Shown: in pieces, positions 11,361 through 62,832 of the stretch
Position numbering within the stretch: position 1 is the stretch's first letter
How the letters are laid out: the number at the start of each line of letters is the position of its first letter
DNA from: Mycobacterium sp.
GTDB taxonomy: Bacteria; Actinomycetota; Actinomycetes; Mycobacteriales; Mycobacteriaceae
Assembly (NCBI GenBank): GCA_018401645.1
Contig: JAGYKK010000005.1
Span: forward strand, 1-64,000
Direction: 5' to 3'
DNA length: 64,000 bases
The notes under the pieces: model-generated
Databases searched by the model: none
Told to the model about the DNA's origin: nothing
Seen by the model: the letters and a program-made list of their open reading frames with translations, nothing else
Translations under genes and position numbers: made by a program

Positions 11361-11759
11361 ATGAGCACAACGTTCTCGGCGAGGTTGAATCGCCTTTTCG
11401 ACACGGTCTATCCCCCGGGTCGCGGGCCGCACACCTCCGCTGAAGTAATCGGCGCGCTCAAGGCTGAGGGCGTGACCATGTCGGCCCCGTATCTGTCGCA
11501 GTTGCGGTCTGGTAACCGCACCAACCCTTCCGCAACGACGATGACGGCACTGGCTAACTTCTTCCGCATCAAGCCGGAATACTTCACCGACGACGCGTAC
11601 TACGCGAAGTTGGATGCCGAGCTGACCTTCTTGGCAAGCATGCGCGACGACGGCGTCCGCCGGATCGCCGCGCGTACCGTTGGTCTGTCCCCGGAGGCAC
11701 AGCGCGACGTCGCGGAAAAGGTCGACGAACTGCGTCGTCGGGAACAACTCGACGCCTAG
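11361..11759 (+). CDS. espR: Nucleoid-associated transcriptional regulator EspR (HTH)
   Basis: MSTTFSARLNRLFDTVYPPGRGPHTSAEVIGALKAEGVTMSAPYLSQLRSGNRTNPSATTMTALANFFRI...; 132 aa. Confidence 0.95.
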   Translation: MSTTFSARLNRLFDTVYPPGRGPHTSAEVIGALKAEGVTMSAPYLSQLRSGNRTNPSATTMTALANFFRIKPEYFTDDAYYAKLDAELTFLASMRDDGVRRIAARTVGLSPEAQRDVAEKVDELRRREQLDA

Positions 11760-11763
11760 GACC

Positions 11764-12894
11764 TCAACCGGTCACCGGGCGCGGGGTGGCACCCGCACCG
11801 TCGTCGGCGTTCGATCCGGAGGATCTTCCGACGTTGCGATATTGACGAGCGATCTCCAGAATCCACTCCCGATCCGAGCAGTTCGCGGGTTGCCGCAGCC
11901 AACCGTGACCCGGGAAGGCGCCGGCTGCATCGGCGGCATGAATCCATTGTGCGACGGCGAGTGCCTGCGCGGACGCGGAGGTACCTGGCGGCACATCCGC
12001 GCTCCCGGCGAAGTCCGGCGTCTGACGGGCCGCCTCGGCCTCCAGATACAGCGCGTCTGAGATCAATGAAAGTTGTTCCGCGACACGGAATACCAGCGGC
12101 CCACGGGGTCGCACGCCGATGCCGATGTCGGGGTGGCGCCGTGACATCTCCCGGCGCAGCGGCCCGATGAGATGAAGTTCACGACGTGCGCCGAACCAGT
12201 CCTCAACGGCCGGCAGCAGCGATCCCGCCGCCACGACGGCCATTGCACACATCAGGAGGGTCGCGGCGGTCCCAACGCCCACCAGGGGCGTGCTGCCCAC
12301 GGCACGCATCAGGAAAAAGGCGCTGGCCGCCACCATCAGGGCGATCCCGATCGTGAAGATGAACAGTGCCCGGCCGCGGCGACTGGGATTGGCAAATCGC
12401 ATTCCGACCCAGGCCACCAACGTCAGGGCAAAAAGCACATACAGCAGTGGAACCAGCCAGTGCAACGCCGTATTCGCCGAGCCGAGATTGCGCGTCAGGT
12501 ACTCCCGCGGCGCCATCTCAGGTTGACGCTCACCGCCGAGGAACAACGTCACGGTGAGCACCGCGATGAGTGCCCCCAGCCCGTACTGCAGCACGGCACG
12601 GCGGCGCGTGACCCCCGGCTGCCGGGTCGAGGCGACGGAGGTGATCATCACGCAACTGCCGGTGGCCGAGGCGACCAGCGCCACCTGACTGAGTCCGATC
12701 GCGATATTGGGCCAGCCCAACGCGGTATCGACCAACAGCGTCAATGGCGCCCAGTTCAGAGTGGCCACCACGGCCAGACTGCCCAGCGCGATGATCATCG
12801 CGCTGCTGACCACCGACCGTTGGTTGACCAGCGCCCAACCGATCCGCAGGCCGGTGGCCATCCCCAACAGGCCGGCGATGACCCAGACGATCAA
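11764..12894 (-). CDS. MAB_1171c-like (DUF6545) multi-TM putative transporter/membrane protein
   Basis: Multiple TM helices followed by a soluble C-term (LHLIGPLRREMSRRHPDIGIGVRPRGPLVFRVAEQLSLISDALYLE). TTG start at 12894 overlaps the upstream stop. Confidence 0.75.
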   Translation of the reverse strand: MIVWVIAGLLGMATGLRIGWALVNQRSVVSSAMIIALGSLAVVATLNWAPLTLLVDTALGWPNIAIGLSQVALVASATGSCVMITSVASTRQPGVTRRRAVLQYGLGALIAVLTVTLFLGGERQPEMAPREYLTRNLGSANTALHWLVPLLYVLFALTLVAWVGMRFANPSRRGRALFIFTIGIALMVAASAFFLMRAVGSTPLVGVGTAATLLMCAMAVVAAGSLLPAVEDWFGARRELHLIGPLRREMSRRHPDIGIGVRPRGPLVFRVAEQLSLISDALYLEAEAARQTPDFAGSADVPPGTSASAQALAVAQWIHAADAAGAFPGHGWLRQPANCSDREWILEIARQYRNVGRSSGSNADDGAGATPRPVTG

Positions 12895-13379
12895 CCAAAC
12901 GCCTCTCCGAGGCGGACCTGGACGATCGACGCGCGGTCGCTGGGCAGCCGGCCGAGCCGGTAGATCAGGAGTGCGGCGAAGTCCTCGGCCTCCTGCTCGA
13001 CATCCTCGCCACCGGGTCCCATACAGCCCGTGCGCTGGTTGAGCATGTAGCTGATCAGATCGTCGCCGGCCACCTCGGCGACTTCCCGGGCCGCTTCGAT
13101 GACCGGCATGCCATCGTGGCCCAGGACCAGATGGCCCAGTTCGTGGGCGAGGGTGCGATCGGCGGTGGGCAGGCCGTCCTGGATCAGGAATTCGTCGTAA
13201 TCGGCGTACTGCCGCCACTGCCCAGAGACACCCCGCGGCAAGACGGCCGTGCTCACCACAATGCTCCTCCCCCGGTGCTCGCCGACCGCGGTCACCAGGC
13301 CGGCCAGTGACACCTCGCCGTGGCGGGGTGCCAGCGCGAGCACGTCGTTCACCGCCCGGCCCACCCGGTGTTCGGTCAC
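12891..13379 (-). CDS. ImmA/IrrE-type HExxH metallopeptidase-like protein (162 aa)
   Basis: TLAHELGHLVLGHDG with downstream EQEAEDFAALLIYRL, a plausible third zinc ligand. Confidence 0.78.
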   Translation of the reverse strand: MTEHRVGRAVNDVLALAPRHGEVSLAGLVTAVGEHRGRSIVVSTAVLPRGVSGQWRQYADYDEFLIQDGLPTADRTLAHELGHLVLGHDGMPVIEAAREVAEVAGDDLISYMLNQRTGCMGPGGEDVEQEAEDFAALLIYRLGRLPSDRASIVQVRLGEAFG

Positions 13380-14300
13380 TGCAGGAACCGGGCGATCCCG
13401 CCGGCGGGCAGCGCGTAACCGGCCTTGGCCTGGCGATAGCCGAGGAACCCGCCGAAGGCGGTGATGCCGAGAAGGCCAGCCACTCCCGGCAACGCCAGCG
13501 CAGCGACGTCCGCGATGTCCGCCTCGCGGAGATAGTTCGGGTATCCCACCCGGCCCGCCTCCGGTGGCCGGGTATCGGCGCCGGGCCGCGTAGGGGGCGC
13601 AGCCGGCGGCGCGATAACCCGGGCCAGCGGGGTCGGTTCAATCGGACCGCTGGTAGCGAGAGCCGCTCGCGGGGATTCCGGCGGAGATGTTGCGGGAGCC
13701 GCCACTGGCGACTCCGAGAGCGCCGTGCCGCCGGATGTCGCGGGACTGCTGAGCCCCTCCATTCCGAGCCCGGGCAACGCGCGCCCGGTCGTTGCCGGGA
13801 ACTGGGCGAGCGGAGGGGCCGGCGGAGGGGCAGTTACCACCCAGAAGTTGCCATCCCATCCGCCGTTTCTCCACGCCAAGGGGCAATGGCACCGGCCGGA
13901 CCGGTAAATCCGGCCAGACCGGCCAGTTGATGTGAGGCCAGTTGATGTGACAGTGCCACTCGGGCGACTGCGCGGAGTGGGCGTTTTCCCCCGGAGCTTC
14001 ACCGGCGGACCCGCGCCCGGCGGGCCGCCCGGGGCTTCGGCGCTGCGCAGTCGAGTCAACGGGGCGAATCCCCGGCACTTGGCTGCGGGCCCGGGGTTGT
14101 CCGCCTACGGGATTGCCGCGACGGTCCGCGCCGGACGAGCGGGGCGAGTTGTCCGGCGCCCGGTCCACCGCGGCGGGTTCCGCCTGAGCGGGCGCGGCCA
14201 GACCTATGCTCGCCGCGGCGCTGACACCCCCTGTGCCGCACAGGACTCCCGCGGTGAGCGTCCAACTCATCACCACGGCGCGTCGTCGCGACCGGTTCAC
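13376..14300 (-). pseudogene. Secreted/anchored W/P-rich protein with signal peptide and C-terminal TM, split over two frames
   Basis: N-term MNRSRRRAVVMSWTLTAGVLCGTGGVSAAASIGLAAPAQA; ...WHCHINWPHINWPVWPDLP; C-term in another frame WRNGGWDGNFWVVTAPPPAPPLAQFP...ALALPGVAGLLGITAFGGFLGYRQAKAGYALPAGGIARFLQ. Confidence 0.55.
13921..13950. repeat. Two tandem copies of GGCCAGTTGATGTGA (encode HINWP HINWP)
   Basis: Exact 15-bp direct repeat. Confidence 0.85.
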
Positions 14301-14464: not shown

Positions 14465-15121
14465 ATGGGCCTGTTCATCAAGCGCAAGAGTCGGGCGACA
14501 AAGCGCGCGGAGGCCCGGGCACTCAAGACCAAGGCCAGGTTGGAAGCCAAACTCGCCGCAAAGAACGAGGCCAAACGCATCAAGGTCACTGCCGCGGCGC
14601 AGGGTAAGGCGGTCAAGGCACACCTCAAAGCACAAAAGGACAGCGATCGCGCAGCAGTGCGGGTCGCCGAGACCCGACTGCGCACCAAACGCGAGGGCAG
14701 ACTTCTCTCACCCGGCCGGGTGCGCCGAACGTTGACGGTGTCCCGACTTCTGGCGCCGGTCGTCGTGCCGATCGCCTACCGGGCTGCGATGGCCGCCCGG
14801 GGTGCGATAGACGAACGCCGGGCGGATCGACTCGGCGTGCCACTGACAGCGCTGGGTCAGTTCTCCGGCCAGGGTGGACGGCTTTCGGCCCGGATCTCCG
14901 GAGCCGAGAAGACCCTGCGACTGGTGGCCGAGAAGAGACCCGGAGATGACGAGAACCAGCAGTTCGTCGCCGCGATGACCGACCGATTGACCGCATTGTC
15001 GGCAGCCGTGCCGGCCGCGGAGAACATGCCCGGCCCCCGCCGACGGGATGCCCAAAACTCGATCAGCGGACAACTCGACGGCATAGAGGCCGACCTGTTG
15101 GCGCGGCTGGGGGTGTTGTAG
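14465..15121 (+). CDS. DUF6474 family protein (Rv3850-like, 218 aa)
   Basis: MGLFIKRKSRATKRAEARALKTKARLEAKLAAKNEAKRIK...; position and length match Rv3850. Confidence 0.85.
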   Translation: MGLFIKRKSRATKRAEARALKTKARLEAKLAAKNEAKRIKVTAAAQGKAVKAHLKAQKDSDRAAVRVAETRLRTKREGRLLSPGRVRRTLTVSRLLAPVVVPIAYRAAMAARGAIDERRADRLGVPLTALGQFSGQGGRLSARISGAEKTLRLVAEKRPGDDENQQFVAAMTDRLTALSAAVPAAENMPGPRRRDAQNSISGQLDGIEADLLARLGVL

Positions 15122-28991: not shown

Positions 28992-30559
28992 CTATAGGAC
29001 GTCGGTGATGTCGTTCTTCAGCGCCTCTGCCTGGGTGCCGAACACCGCCTGCACGTTGTTACCGACTTCGATGACGCCGGCGGCTCCCAGTGCTTTCAGC
29101 CGGGCCTGATCGACCTTCCCGGGGTCGGCCACCTCCATCCGTAGCCGGGTGATGCAGGCGTCGACGTTGACCAGATTGGACCGGCCCCCAAACGCCGCGA
29201 TGAGTTGCTCGGCCTTGCTCTCCACGGCGGTCACCGCCGTCGCGCCCGACCCCCCGGACGCGTCCGGGATGGCCGATACCGGACCCTCACTGAGGTTGGC
29301 TCGCTCCTCGGCCTCGAACTCACCCTCCGGTTCGCGACCGGGGGTGCGCATATTCCACTTCGTGATCGCAAACCGAAACAGCAGGTAGTACACCGCGAAG
29401 AACACCACGCCCATGAGAATCAGTAGTGGGACATTCTTGGCCGCCGGGGCGGTGCCGTAGAGCAACAGGTCGATCAAACCCGCGGAGAATGAAAACCCGA
29501 GATGGATGTCCAGCGCGTAGGCGATCGCCAGCGACGCCCCGGTGAGCAGGGCGTGAATGACGTAGAGCGGGAACGCCACAAACATGAATGCGAATTCCAG
29601 CGGTTCGGTGACGCCGGTCAGAAACGCCGTCAACCCGGCCGCTGAGAGGATGCCGAAGGCAACTTTTCGCTGGCGGACGTTGGCGACATGGATCATCGCC
29701 AAAGCGCCGCGGGCAGCCCGAACATCAGGATGGGGTAGAAACCGGCGGTCAGATGCCCACCGGTCGGGTCGCCGGCGGCGAAGCGCGTCAGTTCACCGGT
29801 GACCACACTGCCATCCGGCGTCTTGTAGTCGCCGTAAATGAACCACACATAGGAGTTCAGGATGTGGTGCAGGCCAATGGGAATCAGCATGCGGTTGGCG
29901 AATCCGTAGACGAATGCACCGAGCGCGCCCGCACCTCCGATGAACCTGCCCAGCCCGGTAAGCCCGGCGTCGAAAACGGGATAGAAGTAGCTCATCCCGA
30001 AGGCGACCACCAGGGTCGCCAGCGACACGGCGATGGGTACGAAGCGTCTACCGCCGAAGAAGCCGAGGTACGGCGGCAATTGGATGGTGTGGTACCGGTC
30101 GAAGAGCCACGCGGTCAGCAGGCCCACGATGATGCCGCCGAACACGCTGTAATTGATCTGAGCCTGACCGCCCGCGGTATCGACCTGACCGGCGAGCACG
30201 AACGGCGACATCGTCTTGAATACCGCCTGCATCACCAGGTACCCGACCACTGCGGCCAGCGCGGTGGAGCCGTCCGCCTTGCGGGCGAAACCAATCGCGA
30301 CGCCGACAGCGAACAGCAGAGGAAGGTTGGTGAAGAGCGCACCACCGGCAGCACTCATGGCCTGGAAGAACGGCCCGATCACCGGGGCCTGAATCCGGCC
30401 GAGCAGATCGTCCTGGCCCAGTCGCAGCAGAATTCCTGCGGCAGGCAGCACGGCAATCGGCAGCATCAGACTCTTGCCGAGTCGCTGCAATTGCGCGAAT
30501 CCCGGGATGTTCAGACCTGACTTCGATTGTGCACCTGCAGCTTTGGTCGCTTTACTCAT
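28992..30559 (-). pseudogene. nagE: PTS N-acetylglucosamine/glucose-type EIICB, single frameshift near 29697
   Basis: 29693-30559 ORF is EIIC N-term (LQRLGKSLMLPIAVLPAAGILLRLGQDDLL); 28992-29702 ORF is EIIC C-term (TGVTEPLEFAFMFVAFPLYVIHALLTG) plus EIIB (VDACITRLRMEVADPGKVD). The frame is restored by one extra base: GCG GCG (G)CT TTG GCG ATG ATC. Confidence 0.9.
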
Positions 30560-50846: not shown

Positions 50847-52509
50847 CTAACGTTCCTTCACCCGGCCGTGGTCGACCACCCAGTACCGATCCAGTCGGAC
50901 GTTCTGCAACATTCGGCGATCGTGAGTAACCAGCAGCAGAGCGCCGTCGTACGTCTCGAGTGCCTGCTCGAGTTGCTCGATGGCGGCGAGATCGAGGTGG
51001 TTCGTCGGCTCATCGAGAACGAGCACATTCGTGCCGCCCGCCTGTAACAGGGCAAGGCCGGCGCGGGTTCGCTCACCGGGCGATAACTCGTCGACCGCGC
51101 GTTCCACATGGTCTGCGCGCAACCCGAACTTCGCCAGAAGGGTACGCACATCGGCGGTCGACCATGACGGCACCCGTTGCTCAAAACGGTCGACGAGTCT
51201 GCCCGGACCGGAGAACTCGGCGCGAACCTGATCGATCTCGCCGATGGCGACGTTGGCACCCAGGCTCGCCCGACCCTCATCGGGCTGTTGACGGCCGAGA
51301 AGCAGTCGCAGCAGTGTCGACTTACCCGCGCCATTAGGACCGGTGATACCGATCCGCTCGCCGGCATCAACCTGAATCGACACCGGTCCGAGGACAAAAT
51401 CCCCTTGCCGCACAACGGCATTAGCCAGAGTCGCGACCACCGAACTTGATCGGGGCGCAGATCCGATGGTGAACTCCAGTGTCCATTCCTTACGGGGTTC
51501 GTCAACTTCTTGGAGGCGGGCGATACGGCTCTCCATCTGGCGAACCTTCTGGGCCTGCTTCTCGCTGGACTCGGTGGCCGCGCGGCGCCGGATCTTGTCG
51601 TTGTCCGGAGACTTGCGCATCGCATTGCGGACACCCTGACTGGACCACTCCCGCTGGGTGCGTGCGCGGGCCACCAGATCGGATTTCTTGTCGGCGAACT
51701 CGTCGTACTGTTCTCGGCGGTGACGGCGGGCGACCTCACGCTCCTCCAAAAAGCTGTCGTATCCGCCGCCGAAGACGGTGGTGGTGTTTTGGGCCAGATC
51801 CAGTTCCAGAACCCGCGTCACACTGCGGGCGAGGAACTCGCGGTCATGACTCACCAGCACGACGCCACCGCGAAGATCGCGGACGAAGTCCTCCAGTCGT
51901 TGCAGTCCGTCGAGGTCGAGATCGTTGGTCGGCTCATCAAGGAGAACGATGTCGAAGCGCGACAGCATCAGTGCCGCCAATCCGACCCGCGCCGCCTGTC
52001 CGCCCGACAATGCGGTCGTTGTCGTCGATGTCGGGCTCACCGCGCCGCTGTGCAGACCCAGATCCGCCAGCACCGCGGGAATTCGGTCGTCGAGGTCAGC
52101 TGCGCCGGTGGCGAGCCAATGCTCCAATGCCACGGCGTAGGCGTCGGCCGGATCCGCGTCTGTTGGACCCTGGGCTGGGTCCGCTAACGCCGAGGCCGCG
52201 GCATCCATGGCACGAGTCGCCGCGGTGCACCCGGTGCGCCGCGCGATGTACGGCGACGGTCTCCCCGGGCACCCGTTGATGCTCCTGCGGCAGCCACCCG
52301 ACGAAGGCGTCGGCGGGTGCCGCGCTGACCGTGCCCTCCAGTGGCTCGACGTCACCGGCCAGGATCCGTAGCAGGGTGCTCTTACCGGCGCCGTTGGCGC
52401 CGACGACCCCGATGACATCACCCGGCGCCACCGTCAGGTCCACACCCTCAAACAGGGTGCGGTGGGCGAATCCGCCGGCCACGCCTTTGGCGACGAGCGT
52501 TGCGGTCAT
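50847..52509 (-). pseudogene. ABC-F family ATP-binding protein, single frameshift near 52249
   Basis: N-term MTATLVAKGVAGGFAHRTLFEGVDLTVAPGDVIGVVGANGAGKSTLLRILAG...PGETVAV in one frame, YIARRTGCTAATRAMD... in another; LSGGQAARVGLAALMLSRFDIVLLDEPTNDLD; second NBD GITGPNGAGKSTLLRLLLG, LDEPTNHLDLAAIEQLEQAL. Confidence 0.92.
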
Positions 52510-52563
52510 CGATCCATCGTCGCACCCGCGCCGCTGCCGCCGGGCTTCCCTACAGTACAAACC

Positions 52564-52854
52564 ATGGCCTTCACCCATGTAGTGACTTTTAAGTGGCTCG
52601 ATGACGACTTCGCCGACGGTGAGATCGCTGATGCTCTGCGCGGACTTGTCTCCGGTTTCGACGGCGTCCACAACTACCTGTGCGGATCCGATGTCGGATT
52701 CACCCCGTCGGCCTACGACTTCGCGGTGGTGGGTACGTTCGACGATCGCGAGTCCTTCCTCGCCTACCGCGATCACCCCGAACATCAGCGGATCCTCGCC
52801 GAGATGATCGCTCCAAATCTTCAATCCCGCCACGTCGTTCAACTGGAACATTGA
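52564..52854 (+). CDS. Dabb (stress-responsive A/B barrel) family protein
   Basis: MAFTHVVTFKWLDDDFADGEIADALRGL...DFAVVGTFDDRESFLAYRDHPEHQRILAEMIAP. Confidence 0.9.
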   Translation: MAFTHVVTFKWLDDDFADGEIADALRGLVSGFDGVHNYLCGSDVGFTPSAYDFAVVGTFDDRESFLAYRDHPEHQRILAEMIAPNLQSRHVVQLEH

Positions 52855-52916
52855 CGCGGTTAGGGTGGCGGGGTCCGGCTTCAGCGAATGAGCCGACGGA
52901 ACAGTTGGGCGAATGC

Positions 52917-53939
52917 ATGACCGCAGCATCAGAGGCACCGGATCTCGAATCCCGGGTCGGCCACCACTATCAGATGGACGGCACCTATCTGGTCGGCCGC
53001 GAGAAGATCCGTGAGTATGCCCGCGCCGTGCAGGACTACCACCCGGCGCACTGGGATGTCGACGCAGCCAGGAAGCTCGGTTACCCGGAGTTGGTCGCAC
53101 CACTGACCTTCACCTCTACCCCGGGCATGTCCTGCAATCGACGGATGTTCGAGTCGGTGGTCGTCGGTTATGACACCTACGTACAAACTGAAGAAGTCTT
53201 CGAGCAGCACCGGCCCATCGTGGCCGGCGACGAATTGCATATCGACGTCGAGTTGACGGCGGTGCGCCGGATTGCCGGTCGGGATCTGATCACGGTGACC
53301 AACACGTTCACCGACGCTGCCGGGGAACGGGTGCACACCCTGCACACGACCGTGGTCGGCGTCACCTCCGAGGACATTAATCCGGCGGTCAAGGCGGCCG
53401 TGCAGAAAATGATGATGCACGACATGGACATCATGGCCGTTGGCGAGGGCGCCTACACCAAGACGGTCCGCGCCGGCAGCCAGGGCAGGATCGCCGACGA
53501 TGCGTCCCGGAGCCCCGGGACGGCGAACTTCGAGGACGTCACCGTCGGCGATGAGTTGGGGGTCCATCACACCCGGCTGTCCCGGGGCGATCTGGTGAAC
53601 TACGCCGGTGTGGCCGGCGACGCCAACCCGATCCACTGGGATGAGGACATCGCCAAACTGGCCGGCCTGCCCGACGTCATCGCCCACGGGATGCTCACCA
53701 TGGGCCTGGGTGCGGGCTTCGTCTCCGCCTGGACCGGCGATCCCGGTGCGGTCACCCGCTACGCCGTTCGACTGTCCGCTCCCGCGGTCGTGTCGTCCAA
53801 CGACGGCGCGGACATCGAGTTCAGCGGCCGGGTCAAGGCATTGGACCCGGCAACCCGAACCGGTGTCGTCCTCGTCGCGGCGAAATCCGACGGGCGCAAG
53901 ATCTTCGGCCTGGCGACGTTGGACGTTCGCTTCCGCTGA
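52917..53939 (+). CDS. Fused (3R)-hydroxyacyl-ACP dehydratase HadA/HadB-like (double hot-dog/MaoC)
   Basis: VGREKIREYARAVQDYHPAHWDVDAARKLGYPELVAPLTF (HadA-like) plus GDELGVHHTRLSRGDLVNYAGVAGDANPIHWDEDIAKLAGLPDVIAHGMLTMGLGAGFVSAW (HadB-like). Confidence 0.9.
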   Translation: MTAASEAPDLESRVGHHYQMDGTYLVGREKIREYARAVQDYHPAHWDVDAARKLGYPELVAPLTFTSTPGMSCNRRMFESVVVGYDTYVQTEEVFEQHRPIVAGDELHIDVELTAVRRIAGRDLITVTNTFTDAAGERVHTLHTTVVGVTSEDINPAVKAAVQKMMMHDMDIMAVGEGAYTKTVRAGSQGRIADDASRSPGTANFEDVTVGDELGVHHTRLSRGDLVNYAGVAGDANPIHWDEDIAKLAGLPDVIAHGMLTMGLGAGFVSAWTGDPGAVTRYAVRLSAPAVVSSNDGADIEFSGRVKALDPATRTGVVLVAAKSDGRKIFGLATLDVRFR

Positions 53940-60671: not shown

Positions 60672-62832
60672 ATGAATGCCCGGCCTTCGGACACCGCCTT
60701 CGCGGCCGCGGTGGAAGCCGTTCGACACGGCGACCAAACCCTCGACGCCGCCGTGGCGGACCTGATCGACCGGCTGACCGAGCGCGAGTTGCTGTGGCTG
60801 CTCGACGGTGATCTGACGATCCTGCGGGGGGTGCGGGAGATGTCGCAGCGGTACAACAAAGTGCCGTTCGAGGGCGGCCGCATCGACCGACTCTGATCCC
60901 GGCATTCGGTTCACCGACGGCCCTCGCGGGGTGGCACTGGGCGCCTCGACTGCATTCCCGGTGGCCATCGCCCGGGCCGCGACCTGGGATATCAACCTTG
61001 AGCGAGAAGTCGCCAGTGTCATCGGTGCCGAAGCCCGTGCGCAGGGCGCCAACCTGTGGGCCGGCACCTGCGTGAACCTGGCCTATGCCCCCGGCTGGGG
61101 TCGGACGCAGGAGTCCTACGGCGAGGACCCGGTTCTGCTCGGCGCGATGGGGCCGCGTCGGTCGAGGGTGTCAACCCGTGGGTGATGTCGTGCGTGAAGC
61201 ACTTCGCGCTCAACTCAATGGAAGAGGCCCGCTTCCGCGTCGACGTCGATGTCGCCGAGGACGTGCTGCACGAGGTTTACCTTCCGCACTTTCGCACGGT
61301 CGTCGAGGCGGGCGTGGATTGCGTGATGAGCGCCTACAACTCGGTGAACGGAACCTGGGCGGGGCAGAACCGATACCTGCTCACCGACGTCCTGCGTGTG
61401 CAGTGGCAATTCACCGGATTCGTGCTGACCGACTTCATCTGGGGGCTTCGCGACCCGGTCGGGTCGGTGGCCGCCGGCCAGGACTTGGAGATGCCCTTCC
61501 GGCAGCAGCGCGCGGGGGCCCTGCCCTCGGCACTGGCGGCCGGAACCCTCAAGCGCACCGACGTCGAACGTGCCGCACACCGGCAACTGTCGGCCCAGAT
61601 CCGATTCGCCGTGCGCGCGCCCGCCCTGGGACAGCCACGAGGACCTCGAGCAGAACCACCGCCGCCTGGCCCGGGAAGTGGCCTGCCGCGGCGCGGTGCT
61701 GCTGTGCAATCAGGTCATCGGGCAGACACCAGCCCTGCCGTTGGTGCAGGATTCACTGTCGCGGGTCGCGCTGCTCGGCGCGTTGGCCGACCGACCCAAC
61801 CAAGGCGATGTCGGCTCGTCAATGGTGAGCCCGCCATCCTCGGTCACGATCCTTGGGGGACTGCGGGAACGGTTGGGCAACAAATTGTTTTATGTCGAGG
61901 GCACCGATCCGACGACGGCGGTTGCCGCAGCGCGCGGCGCTGACGCCGCAGTGGTCGTCGTGGGACTTTCTTCACAGGACGAGGGCGAGTCGATGATCGG
62001 GGTGGATACCGCCTCGACGCAATTGCTCGGCGGGATCGCCCGCTTTCGGCCGGTTGCCGCCGTCGTGGTGCGGATCGCAACCCGGGTGGCCAGGTTCAAG
62101 AAATTCGGTGGCGACCGCCGCGATCTGCGACTGCGCCCCGAGGACGTCGCACTCATCGAGGCGGTGGCGAAGGTCAATGACCGCACCGTGGTGGTGGTCA
62201 TCGGCGGTGGGACGATCGTGCTCGACCCGTGGGACAGCCGCGTCGCCGCGGTGTTGTTGGCGTGGTACCCGGGCATGGAGGGCGGGCACGCAGTTGCCGA
62301 CGTGCTGCTCGGGGATGCCGAGCCGGCTGGGCGGCTCCCGATGGCAATCCCACACCGGCAGGCTGATCTGCCGCAGGTTGATTGGGACACCGATACCGTC
62401 ACCTACGACCGGTGGTGGGGCCAACGCAAACTCGACCGCGACGGCGTCGCCGCTGCCTATCCACTCGGATTCGGCCTGGGCTACACCACATTCGATGTCG
62501 CAGACCTAGAAGTCGGACGACTCGACGGCGAACGGTTCAGTGCCACGGTCACCGTCACCAACACCGGGGTCCGTCGGGGCCGCCATGTCGTCCAGATCTA
62601 CGCGGTGCAATCCGCCGACACCGGACGTCCCGTGCATCATCTGGTCGGCTTCGGGTCGGTATACCTGGAGGCGGGAGCCGGCAATCGGATCGTCATCTAT
62701 TGCTCGCTTCGTCCCATTCAACGCTGGGCCGGAGCCAGTTTCACGTTGGTGGCCAACGACCTCACTATTCGAGCCGCCTCCTATGCCGGTGATCCGGCGG
62801 CGGTAGACGCGACGCTGGCCTTACCGGAGTAG
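60672..62832 (+). pseudogene. Glycoside hydrolase family 3 (beta-glucosidase type) in at least four frame segments
   Basis: MSQRYNKVPFEGGRIDR; GIRFTDGPRGV; GRTQESYGEDPVLLGAM; VNPWVMSCVKHFALNS; YNSVNGTWAGQNRYLLTDVLRVQWQFTGFVLTDFIWG; SRVALLGALADRPNQGDVGSSMVSPPSSVTILGGLRERLG; ERFSATVTVTNTGVRRGRHVVQIY. Confidence 0.9.

What the first reader, a model, noticed from the sequence alone, without database searches (positions are those of the whole stretch)
11361..14300. espR convergent with a coupled operon: anchored secreted protein / HELGH metalloprotease / MAB_1171c-like membrane protein
Three minus-strand genes are translationally coupled by about 4-bp stop/start overlaps (13376/13379 and 12891/12894) and end 4 bp from the espR stop. 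The products are a signal-peptide protein with a W/P-rich ectodomain and C-terminal TM, an ImmA/IrrE-like protease with HELGH, and a multi-TM protein with a cytosolic tail. Established knowledge: ImmA/ImmR and IrrE/DdrO use such proteases to clip XRE-type repressors. Inference: this is an envelope-sensing protease module that could act on EspR (an HTH nucleoid regulator of ESX-1) or on another HTH regulator. In Mtb, as I recall it, espR is followed directly by Rv3850, so this would be an accessory insertion. This is the strongest candidate here for an undescribed signalling unit.
Basis: partly seen in the sequence, partly recalled or inferred. Interest (0 to 1): 0.65.

Follow-up and report, generated by a model that had tools for sequence, protein, structure and literature searches.

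The report
EspR's lost partner protease module
Next to espR, a gene best known as a master regulator in the tuberculosis bacterium, about half of mycobacterial species carry a small protease and a seven-span membrane protein that, by genome-wide evidence, probably exist to cut EspR in response to a signal; the clade whose EspR is closest to that of M. tuberculosis has lost them.

Summary
The genes are real, and the linkage runs far beyond this genome. A 162-aa M78 (IrrE/ImmA/CapP-fold) protease and a 7-TM DUF6545-like protein lie convergent to espR in 140 of 249 Mycobacterium genomes; 248 have espR. On a flanking-gene tree rooted on Mycobacteroides the pair is ancestral and was lost at least twice, so it is not an insertion. 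In Nocardia, Tsukamurella, Rhodococcus plasmids and many other actinobacteria, ~40%-identical EspR paralogues sit beside the same two genes, usually as an operon HTH > M78 > DUF6545. EspR-like loci had an M78 neighbour in 26/30 cases, against 2/30 for generic HTH_3 loci. EspR's best PADLOC hit is CapH and the protease's is CapP, a known substrate/protease pair. EspR residues 104-107 (ARTV) are near-invariant where the protease is present and vary freely where it was lost; they lie in the C-terminal dimerisation domain, near the position where DdrO is cut by PprI. I propose receptor-gated proteolysis of EspR. Cleavage itself is untested. The anchored secreted protein gene is frameshifted in this assembly but intact in most relatives. 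Verdict: new variant of a known kind.

The parts
11361..11759 (+). espR: HTH nucleoid-associated regulator (132 aa), proposed protease substrate
   Evidence: PDB EspR E 2.4e-63; best PADLOC hit capH, residues 35-126
11670..11681 (+). EspR codons 104-107 (ARTV): proposed recognition/cleavage stretch in the C-terminal dimerisation domain
   Evidence: near-invariant with the module, diversified without it; R105 in 88/88 module-bearing EspRs and 57/57 M78-linked EspR-like paralogues
11764..12894 (-). DUF6545/MAB_1171c-like membrane protein (376 aa), predicted 7 TM plus cytosolic helical domain
   Evidence: same place in all 55 named mycobacterial modules
12891..13379 (-). M78-type (IrrE/ImmA/CapP fold) zinc protease, 162 aa
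13131..13145 (-). HELGH zinc motif (protease residues 79-83); third ligand position E132 in AEDFA at 12984-12986
   Evidence: HELGH and AEDFA in 61/61 orthologues
13376..14300 (-). anchored secreted protein gene (signal peptide, Pro-rich ectodomain, C-terminal TM, RQA[KR] tail), frameshifted in the window
14465..15121 (+). Rv3850 homologue, far boundary of the module (directly follows espR where the module is lost)

Best explanation
The locus is an ancestral mycobacterial signalling module. A seven-span DUF6545-family membrane protein (with an accessory anchored secreted protein) senses an envelope or extracellular cue and gates a small cytosolic M78 zinc protease. The active protease cuts EspR in its C-terminal dimerisation domain around residues 104-107 (by analogy with DdrO, most likely near the 104|105 bond). 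This removes the last part of that domain, breaks EspR dimers and lifts or changes EspR control of its regulon. The same HTH/M78/7TM trio probably controls other genes (for example P450 operons) elsewhere in actinobacteria. The clade that carries EspR closest to that of M. tuberculosis has lost the protease and the receptor, leaving EspR unregulated by this route. Shown here: conserved linkage, ancestry and loss, protease fold and zinc-ligand conservation, and the residue footprint. Inferred: that the protease cuts EspR, where it cuts, and that DUF6545 gates it.
For: (1) Linkage: module convergent to espR in all 21 module-bearing genomes inspected first and in 54 of 55 named mycobacterial loci, the 55th ending at a contig edge. 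(2) Distant linkage: EspR-like HTH beside M78 in 21 of 25 further named loci from about 13 actinobacterial genera and on Rhodococcus plasmids. Starting from EspR alone, 8 of 15 paralogues sit in complete HTH-M78-DUF6545 operons; with the family profile 26/30 have M78, against 2/30 generic HTH_3 loci, p 1e-10. (3) HTH and protease distances correlate: r 0.92, and 0.84 without the espR-locus modules. (4) The EspR profile matches solved CapH (7t5u), DdrO and SinR sequences; PADLOC capH and capP are the best hits of EspR and the protease; the protease fold matches CapP, IrrE and PprI. (5) Footprint: A104 87/88, R105 88/88, T106 87/88, V/I107 88/88 with the module; T106 0/31, A104 1/31, R105 20/31 without. 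104-107 is the most rate-shifted 4-residue window of 89, p 3e-6. Both independent losses changed 104 and 106. (6) Removing 10 C-terminal residues of EspR abolishes dimerisation (PMC3315491); PprI cuts DdrO between Leu108 and Arg109 (PMC4374696).
Against: No cleavage experiment and no complex model. Only two independent losses carry the footprint, so a lineage-specific change in EspR's dimer or DNA role could explain it. Residues 104 and 106 in the module-less clade often become L and A, which are common in protease-linked paralogues, so the change is not simply 'loss of a cleavable site'. A second rate-shifted stretch lies at 94-97. The EspR profile matches DdrO only over the HTH domain. In mycobacteria the pair is convergent, not an operon. 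DUF6545 gating is inferred from co-occurrence and topology only; its structural hits are weak (best E 5e-3).
Confidence: 0.6

Rival explanations
1. The protease binds and antagonises EspR (or is itself held at the membrane by DUF6545) without cutting it; the 104-107 stretch is a docking surface rather than a scissile site.
For: The footprint covers two stretches on either side of an unchanged GVRRIA core (94-97 and 104-107), which suits a binding surface; the protease (162 aa) lacks the extra domains of IrrE and CapP.
Against: HELGH and the AEDFA glutamate are in 61/61 orthologues; H79, E80, H83 and H88 are invariant in the 45-row family alignment, which suggests catalysis.
Confidence: 0.14
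2. The true substrate is something else (the anchored secreted protein's cytosolic tail, or an unrelated regulator), and adjacency to espR is inherited synteny.
For: Convergent genes need not be functionally tied; the secreted protein has a conserved cytosolic RQA[KR] tail.
Against: The anchored protein is not recognisable in about 8 of 60 mycobacterial modules and was not recognised outside mycobacteria, while the EspR-family HTH is the constant partner. The window's genome and most module-bearing relatives hold only one EspR-like gene. The footprint lies in EspR.
Confidence: 0.12
3. EspR residues 104-107 changed because EspR took on a different dimer or nucleoid role in the module-less clade, and module loss is a side effect or unrelated.
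For: EspR evolves faster overall in that clade (83.7 against 45.7 changes per unit tree length).
Against: The shift is concentrated at 104-107 and 94-97 rather than spread over the C-terminal domain, and the separate loss in G002 also changed 104 and 106.
Confidence: 0.11
4. The module is an accessory insertion next to espR with no ancestral tie to it.
For: Many species have espR directly followed by Rv3850.
Against: Present in Mycobacteroides and across fast growers; two losses on the tree; EspR paralogues elsewhere carry the same partners.
Confidence: 0.03

Closest known systems
CapH/CapP (HTH repressor and M78 protease regulating CBASS)
   Same: Best PADLOC hits of EspR and the protease are capH and capP; best fold match is CapP 7t5t; HTH plus M78 gene pair.
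   Different: No CBASS genes seen at the locus; the protease is 162 aa against 278-291 for CapP chains; a 7-TM partner is added; CapP is activated by ssDNA (PMC10904395), no such domain is evident here.
IrrE(PprI)/DdrO of Deinococcus
   Same: M78 fold and zinc ligands; HTH partner of about 130 aa; proposed cleavage in the C-terminal dimerisation domain at a similar position (DdrO 108|109).
   Different: No HTH/GAF C-terminal domains in the protease; C-terminal domains not alignable by sequence; EspR is a nucleoid protein, not a simple DNA-damage repressor.
ImmA/ImmR of ICEBs1 and TnSmu1
   Same: Short M78 protease next to an HTH regulator (PMC10233336).
   Different: Here chromosomal and vertically inherited in mycobacteria, with a membrane partner; no mobile-element genes at the locus.
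DUF6545 / MAB_1171c family
   Same: Profile, topology and operon position; relatives at the same operon position reach 101.7 bits against a cut-off of 24.4.
   Different: The window protein is below both curated cut-offs; annotated as 'putative transporter', whereas 7 TM plus a cytosolic helical domain looks receptor-like.
M. tuberculosis EspR (Rv3849)
   Same: Orthologous; same HTH and dimer domain.
   Different: Mtb EspR has QRAH at 104-107 (alignment) and groups by identity with the module-less clade.

Membership tests
M78 / IrrE-ImmA-CapP metalloproteases | HEXXH plus downstream Glu zinc-ligand positions | tested here: met
   HELGH and AEDFA in 61/61 orthologues; H79, E80, H83 invariant in the 45-row family alignment
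M78 / IrrE-ImmA-CapP metalloproteases | Pfam PF06114 gathering score | tested here: not met
   16.8 bits against 22; a score threshold, not a biological feature; the fold search is the stronger test
M78 / IrrE-ImmA-CapP metalloproteases | IrrE/CapP fold | tested here: met
   Foldseek 7t5t E 3.7e-4, 3dti 3.9e-3, 8sln 6.1e-3, all prob 1.00; model pLDDT 76.8 with a poorly predicted loop
M78 / IrrE-ImmA-CapP metalloproteases | Cleaves a cognate HTH regulator | not testable with these tools
   needs biochemistry
CapH/CapP | capH and capP profiles hit the pair | tested here: met
   E 2.5e-4 and 1.1e-4, weak scores
CapH/CapP | Associated CBASS effector and cyclase | tested here: not met
   None recognised among the ORFs of the window (by reading) or in the conserved flanks
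DUF6545 (PF20182) / MAB_1171c (NF042915) | Curated cut-off score | tested here: not met
   18.4 of 24.4 and 31.1 of 100 bits; distant relatives at the same operon position pass PF20182
DUF6545 (PF20182) / MAB_1171c (NF042915) | Multi-TM N-terminal part plus cytosolic domain | tested here: met
   7 long helices then a helical C-terminal domain
EspR | Sequence match to Mtb EspR over the full length | tested here: met
   phmmer 1-132, E 2.4e-63
ImmA/ImmR mobile-element switch | Carried on an ICE or prophage | tested here: not met
   Conserved chromosomal synteny sodA-espR-Rv3850; no phage hit

The most novel reading that the evidence does not exclude
EspR descends from a large actinobacterial family of HTH regulators controlled by a seven-span receptor through a dedicated M78 protease (receptor > protease > HTH, with no kinase). 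M. tuberculosis-type EspR is an orphan that escaped proteolytic control when its clade lost the receptor and protease, which may have contributed to its nucleoid and virulence role.
Probability: 0.42. Interest if true: 0.85.

Novelty: new variant of a known kind. Interest (0 to 1): 0.7.

Why it matters
EspR is a much-studied nucleoid-associated regulator of ESX-1, yet nothing found in the open-access library ties it to a protease. If EspR is the substrate of a receptor-gated protease in fast-growing mycobacteria, there is a direct way to ask how EspR activity is switched, why the clade with Mtb-like EspR lost that switch, and what the widespread DUF6545 family does. It would also add an envelope-linked branch to the M78/HTH switches (IrrE/DdrO, ImmA/ImmR, CapP/CapH), which so far are mostly tied to DNA damage.

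Tried and rejected
First EspR/IrrE paper searches matched unrelated words. PDB sequence search with the protease profile gave only weak ADAMTS-5 and CapP hits, so the fold search was used. DUF6545 fold search gives only 7-helix GPCR-shaped hits at E 5e-3 or worse; taken as topology only, not homology. Chance adjacency: rejected by the HTH_3 control. Accessory insertion: rejected by the tree. Independent-pairs sign test for the EspR residues: only 2 pairs, cannot reach significance, so a rate-shift test was used (the first attempt failed on a script error). Phage origin: no hit. Own-genome search with PF06114 or PF20182 finds nothing over threshold, because these divergent members score below the models. 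The EspR structure paper PMC3158157 is not held.

Full report
Observation. The stated ORFs and overlaps exist. espR is 11361-11759 (+). On the other strand, a DUF6545-like ORF (11764-12894) and a HELGH ORF (12891-13379) overlap by 4 bp; the former stops 4 bp from the espR stop. The 'signal-peptide protein' is split between two frames (13638-14300 and 13376-14059). In the nearest relatives L082 and L083 it is a single ORF of 290 and 281 aa, also overlapping the protease start by 4 bp; an intact gene with the conserved RQA[KR] tail is found in 52 of 60 mycobacterial modules. Several other genes of this draft window (a PTS permease, an ABC-F protein and a beta-glucosidase) also appear split between frames (by reading), so an assembly error is likely. 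The window lies in a 142-contig, 86%-complete assembly.

Conservation in mycobacteria. A first sample of 36 same-genus genomes plus the window's own gave 21 module-bearing genomes, all with the same convergent layout. In 249 genomes, 151 had a protease match; 11 of these were only distant paralogues, leaving 140 with the orthologue (my count from the table). 248 of 249 have espR. Named carriers include M. rhodesiae, M. litorale, M. senegalense, M. llatzerense, M. peregrinum, M. iranicum and M. elephantis. Where the module is missing, espR is followed by the Rv3850 homologue after about 70-210 bp.

Ancestry. A tree of flanking genes rooted on Mycobacteroides (identity of that group checked by 80-88% syntenic DNA matches over several kb to named M. 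franklinii for three of the genomes) needs two changes: loss in one clade (30 of the genomes sampled) and a separate loss in G002. Mtb EspR is most similar to the module-less clade; that Mtb itself lacks the module follows from established gene order (Rv3849-Rv3850), which I did not search directly. The rooting rests on the accepted basal position of Mycobacteroides; the long branch to that group would also attract a midpoint root.

The wider family. Searching with EspR alone, 8 of 15 distant paralogues (about 25-47% identical) in Mycobacteriales lie directly before an M78 gene and a DUF6545 gene. Searching with the protease, 21 of 25 further named loci (Nocardia, Tsukamurella, Mycobacteroides second copies, Actinokineospora, Crossiella, Kibdelosporangium, Amycolatopsis, Actinoplanes, Virgisporangium, Streptomyces, Kitasatospora, Microlunatus, Dermacoccus) have an EspR-like HTH next door, and 20 a DUF6545 hit. 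In Pseudonocardiaceae-type genomes (the family of G049), 26 of 30 EspR-like loci have M78 and 23 have DUF6545; of 30 generic HTH_3 loci, 2 and 0. The search profile was itself built from module-linked HTHs, so 26/30 is an upper figure and 8/15 the less biased one. Two layouts occur: co-directional HTH > M78 > DUF6545, and convergent M78 > DUF6545 facing the HTH (Mycobacterium, Nocardia, Tsukamurella and, with a PAP2 phosphatase gene added, Rhodococcus plasmids). Genes after the co-directional operon include cytochromes P450 and an acyl-CoA ligase. HTH and M78 distances correlate across 42 modules (r 0.92; 0.84 without the espR-locus modules).

The proteins. The protease model (pLDDT 76.8) matches CapP, IrrE and PprI and no other enzyme family better. 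H79, E80 and H83 are invariant in the 45-row family alignment; E132 is nearly so, and AEDFA is in 61/61 mycobacterial orthologues. The DUF6545 model has seven long helices followed by a cytosolic helical domain; positive charges sit in the loops and tail that would be inside, consistent with N-out/C-in (sequence, my reading). All top structural hits are seven-helix receptors but none is significant. The only functional record found for the family is that an M. abscessus MAB_1171c mutant forms about 50% less biofilm (PMC8707978).

EspR as substrate. PADLOC's capH is the only hit of EspR (over 35-126) and capP the top hit of the protease. The EspR family profile also matches DdrO, SinR and the CapH structure. 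In 88 module-bearing mycobacteria EspR 104-107 reads A-R-T-V/I with two exceptions (one A104S, one T106S); in 31 module-less ones T106 is never kept and A104 once. Normalised for the faster evolution of EspR in that clade, 104-107 is the most shifted of 89 four-residue windows (28 against 8 changes, p 3.3e-6, about 3e-4 after correction); 94-97 is next. R105 is invariant in 57 of 57 M78-linked EspR-like paralogues, in 8 of 11 without M78, and in 20 of 31 module-less EspRs. PprI cuts DdrO between Leu108 and Arg109 in its C-terminal domain and needs specific residues there (PMC4374696; PMC10904395). EspR dimerises through its C-terminal domain and loses dimerisation when 10 C-terminal residues are removed (PMC3315491). 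A cut near 104-105 would remove 27-28 residues. This is inference; there are two independent losses only, and the module-less residues L104 and A106 are common in protease-linked paralogues, so 'release from a protease-specific constraint' fits better than 'loss of a cleavable site'.

Conclusion. Most likely mechanism: signal > 7-TM DUF6545 protein (with or without the anchored protein) > M78 protease > cleavage and inactivation of EspR. I put 0.6 on EspR being cut by this protease, and less on DUF6545 being the gate. It works like IrrE/DdrO and CapP/CapH; it is an M78/HTH pair by fold and neighbourhood, but not a CBASS, ICE or Deinococcus system.

Noticed in passing
window 13376-14300: Secreted/anchored protein gene is frameshifted in the window; intact copies exist in most relatives.
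   Followed up: yes
window 28992-30559, 50847-53103, 61056-62832: A PTS permease, an ABC-F ATPase and a beta-glucosidase also look split between two frames, suggesting assembly errors in this draft genome.
   Followed up: no
L082 (CAMDFY010000041.1): Contig titled Bifidobacterium breve MAG carries the mycobacterial sodA-espR-Rv3850 locus, 97% identical EspR: mislabelled or contaminated bin.
   Followed up: no
L282, L283 (Rhodococcus plasmids): M78 > DUF6545-like > (PAP2 phosphatase) facing an EspR-like HTH; one more HTH gene lies just upstream of the EspR-like gene. 35 plasmid records, mostly Rhodococcus, carry the protease.
   Followed up: partly
L059, L060, L155, L159; L147, L157; L156: The co-directional HTH-M78-DUF6545 operon is followed by cytochrome P450 in several genomes, by a conserved 281-286 aa protein (oxygenase-like by eye, no Pfam hit for the L157 copy) in two, and by an acyl-CoA ligase in one: possible targets of the switch.
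   Followed up: partly
L094, L103, L113, L124, L130, L132-L134: Modules without a recognisable anchored secreted protein upstream of the protease; that component seems dispensable.
   Followed up: partly
L140, L141: Mycobacteroides second copies have two tandem DUF6545-like genes between the protease and the convergent EspR-like HTH.
   Followed up: no
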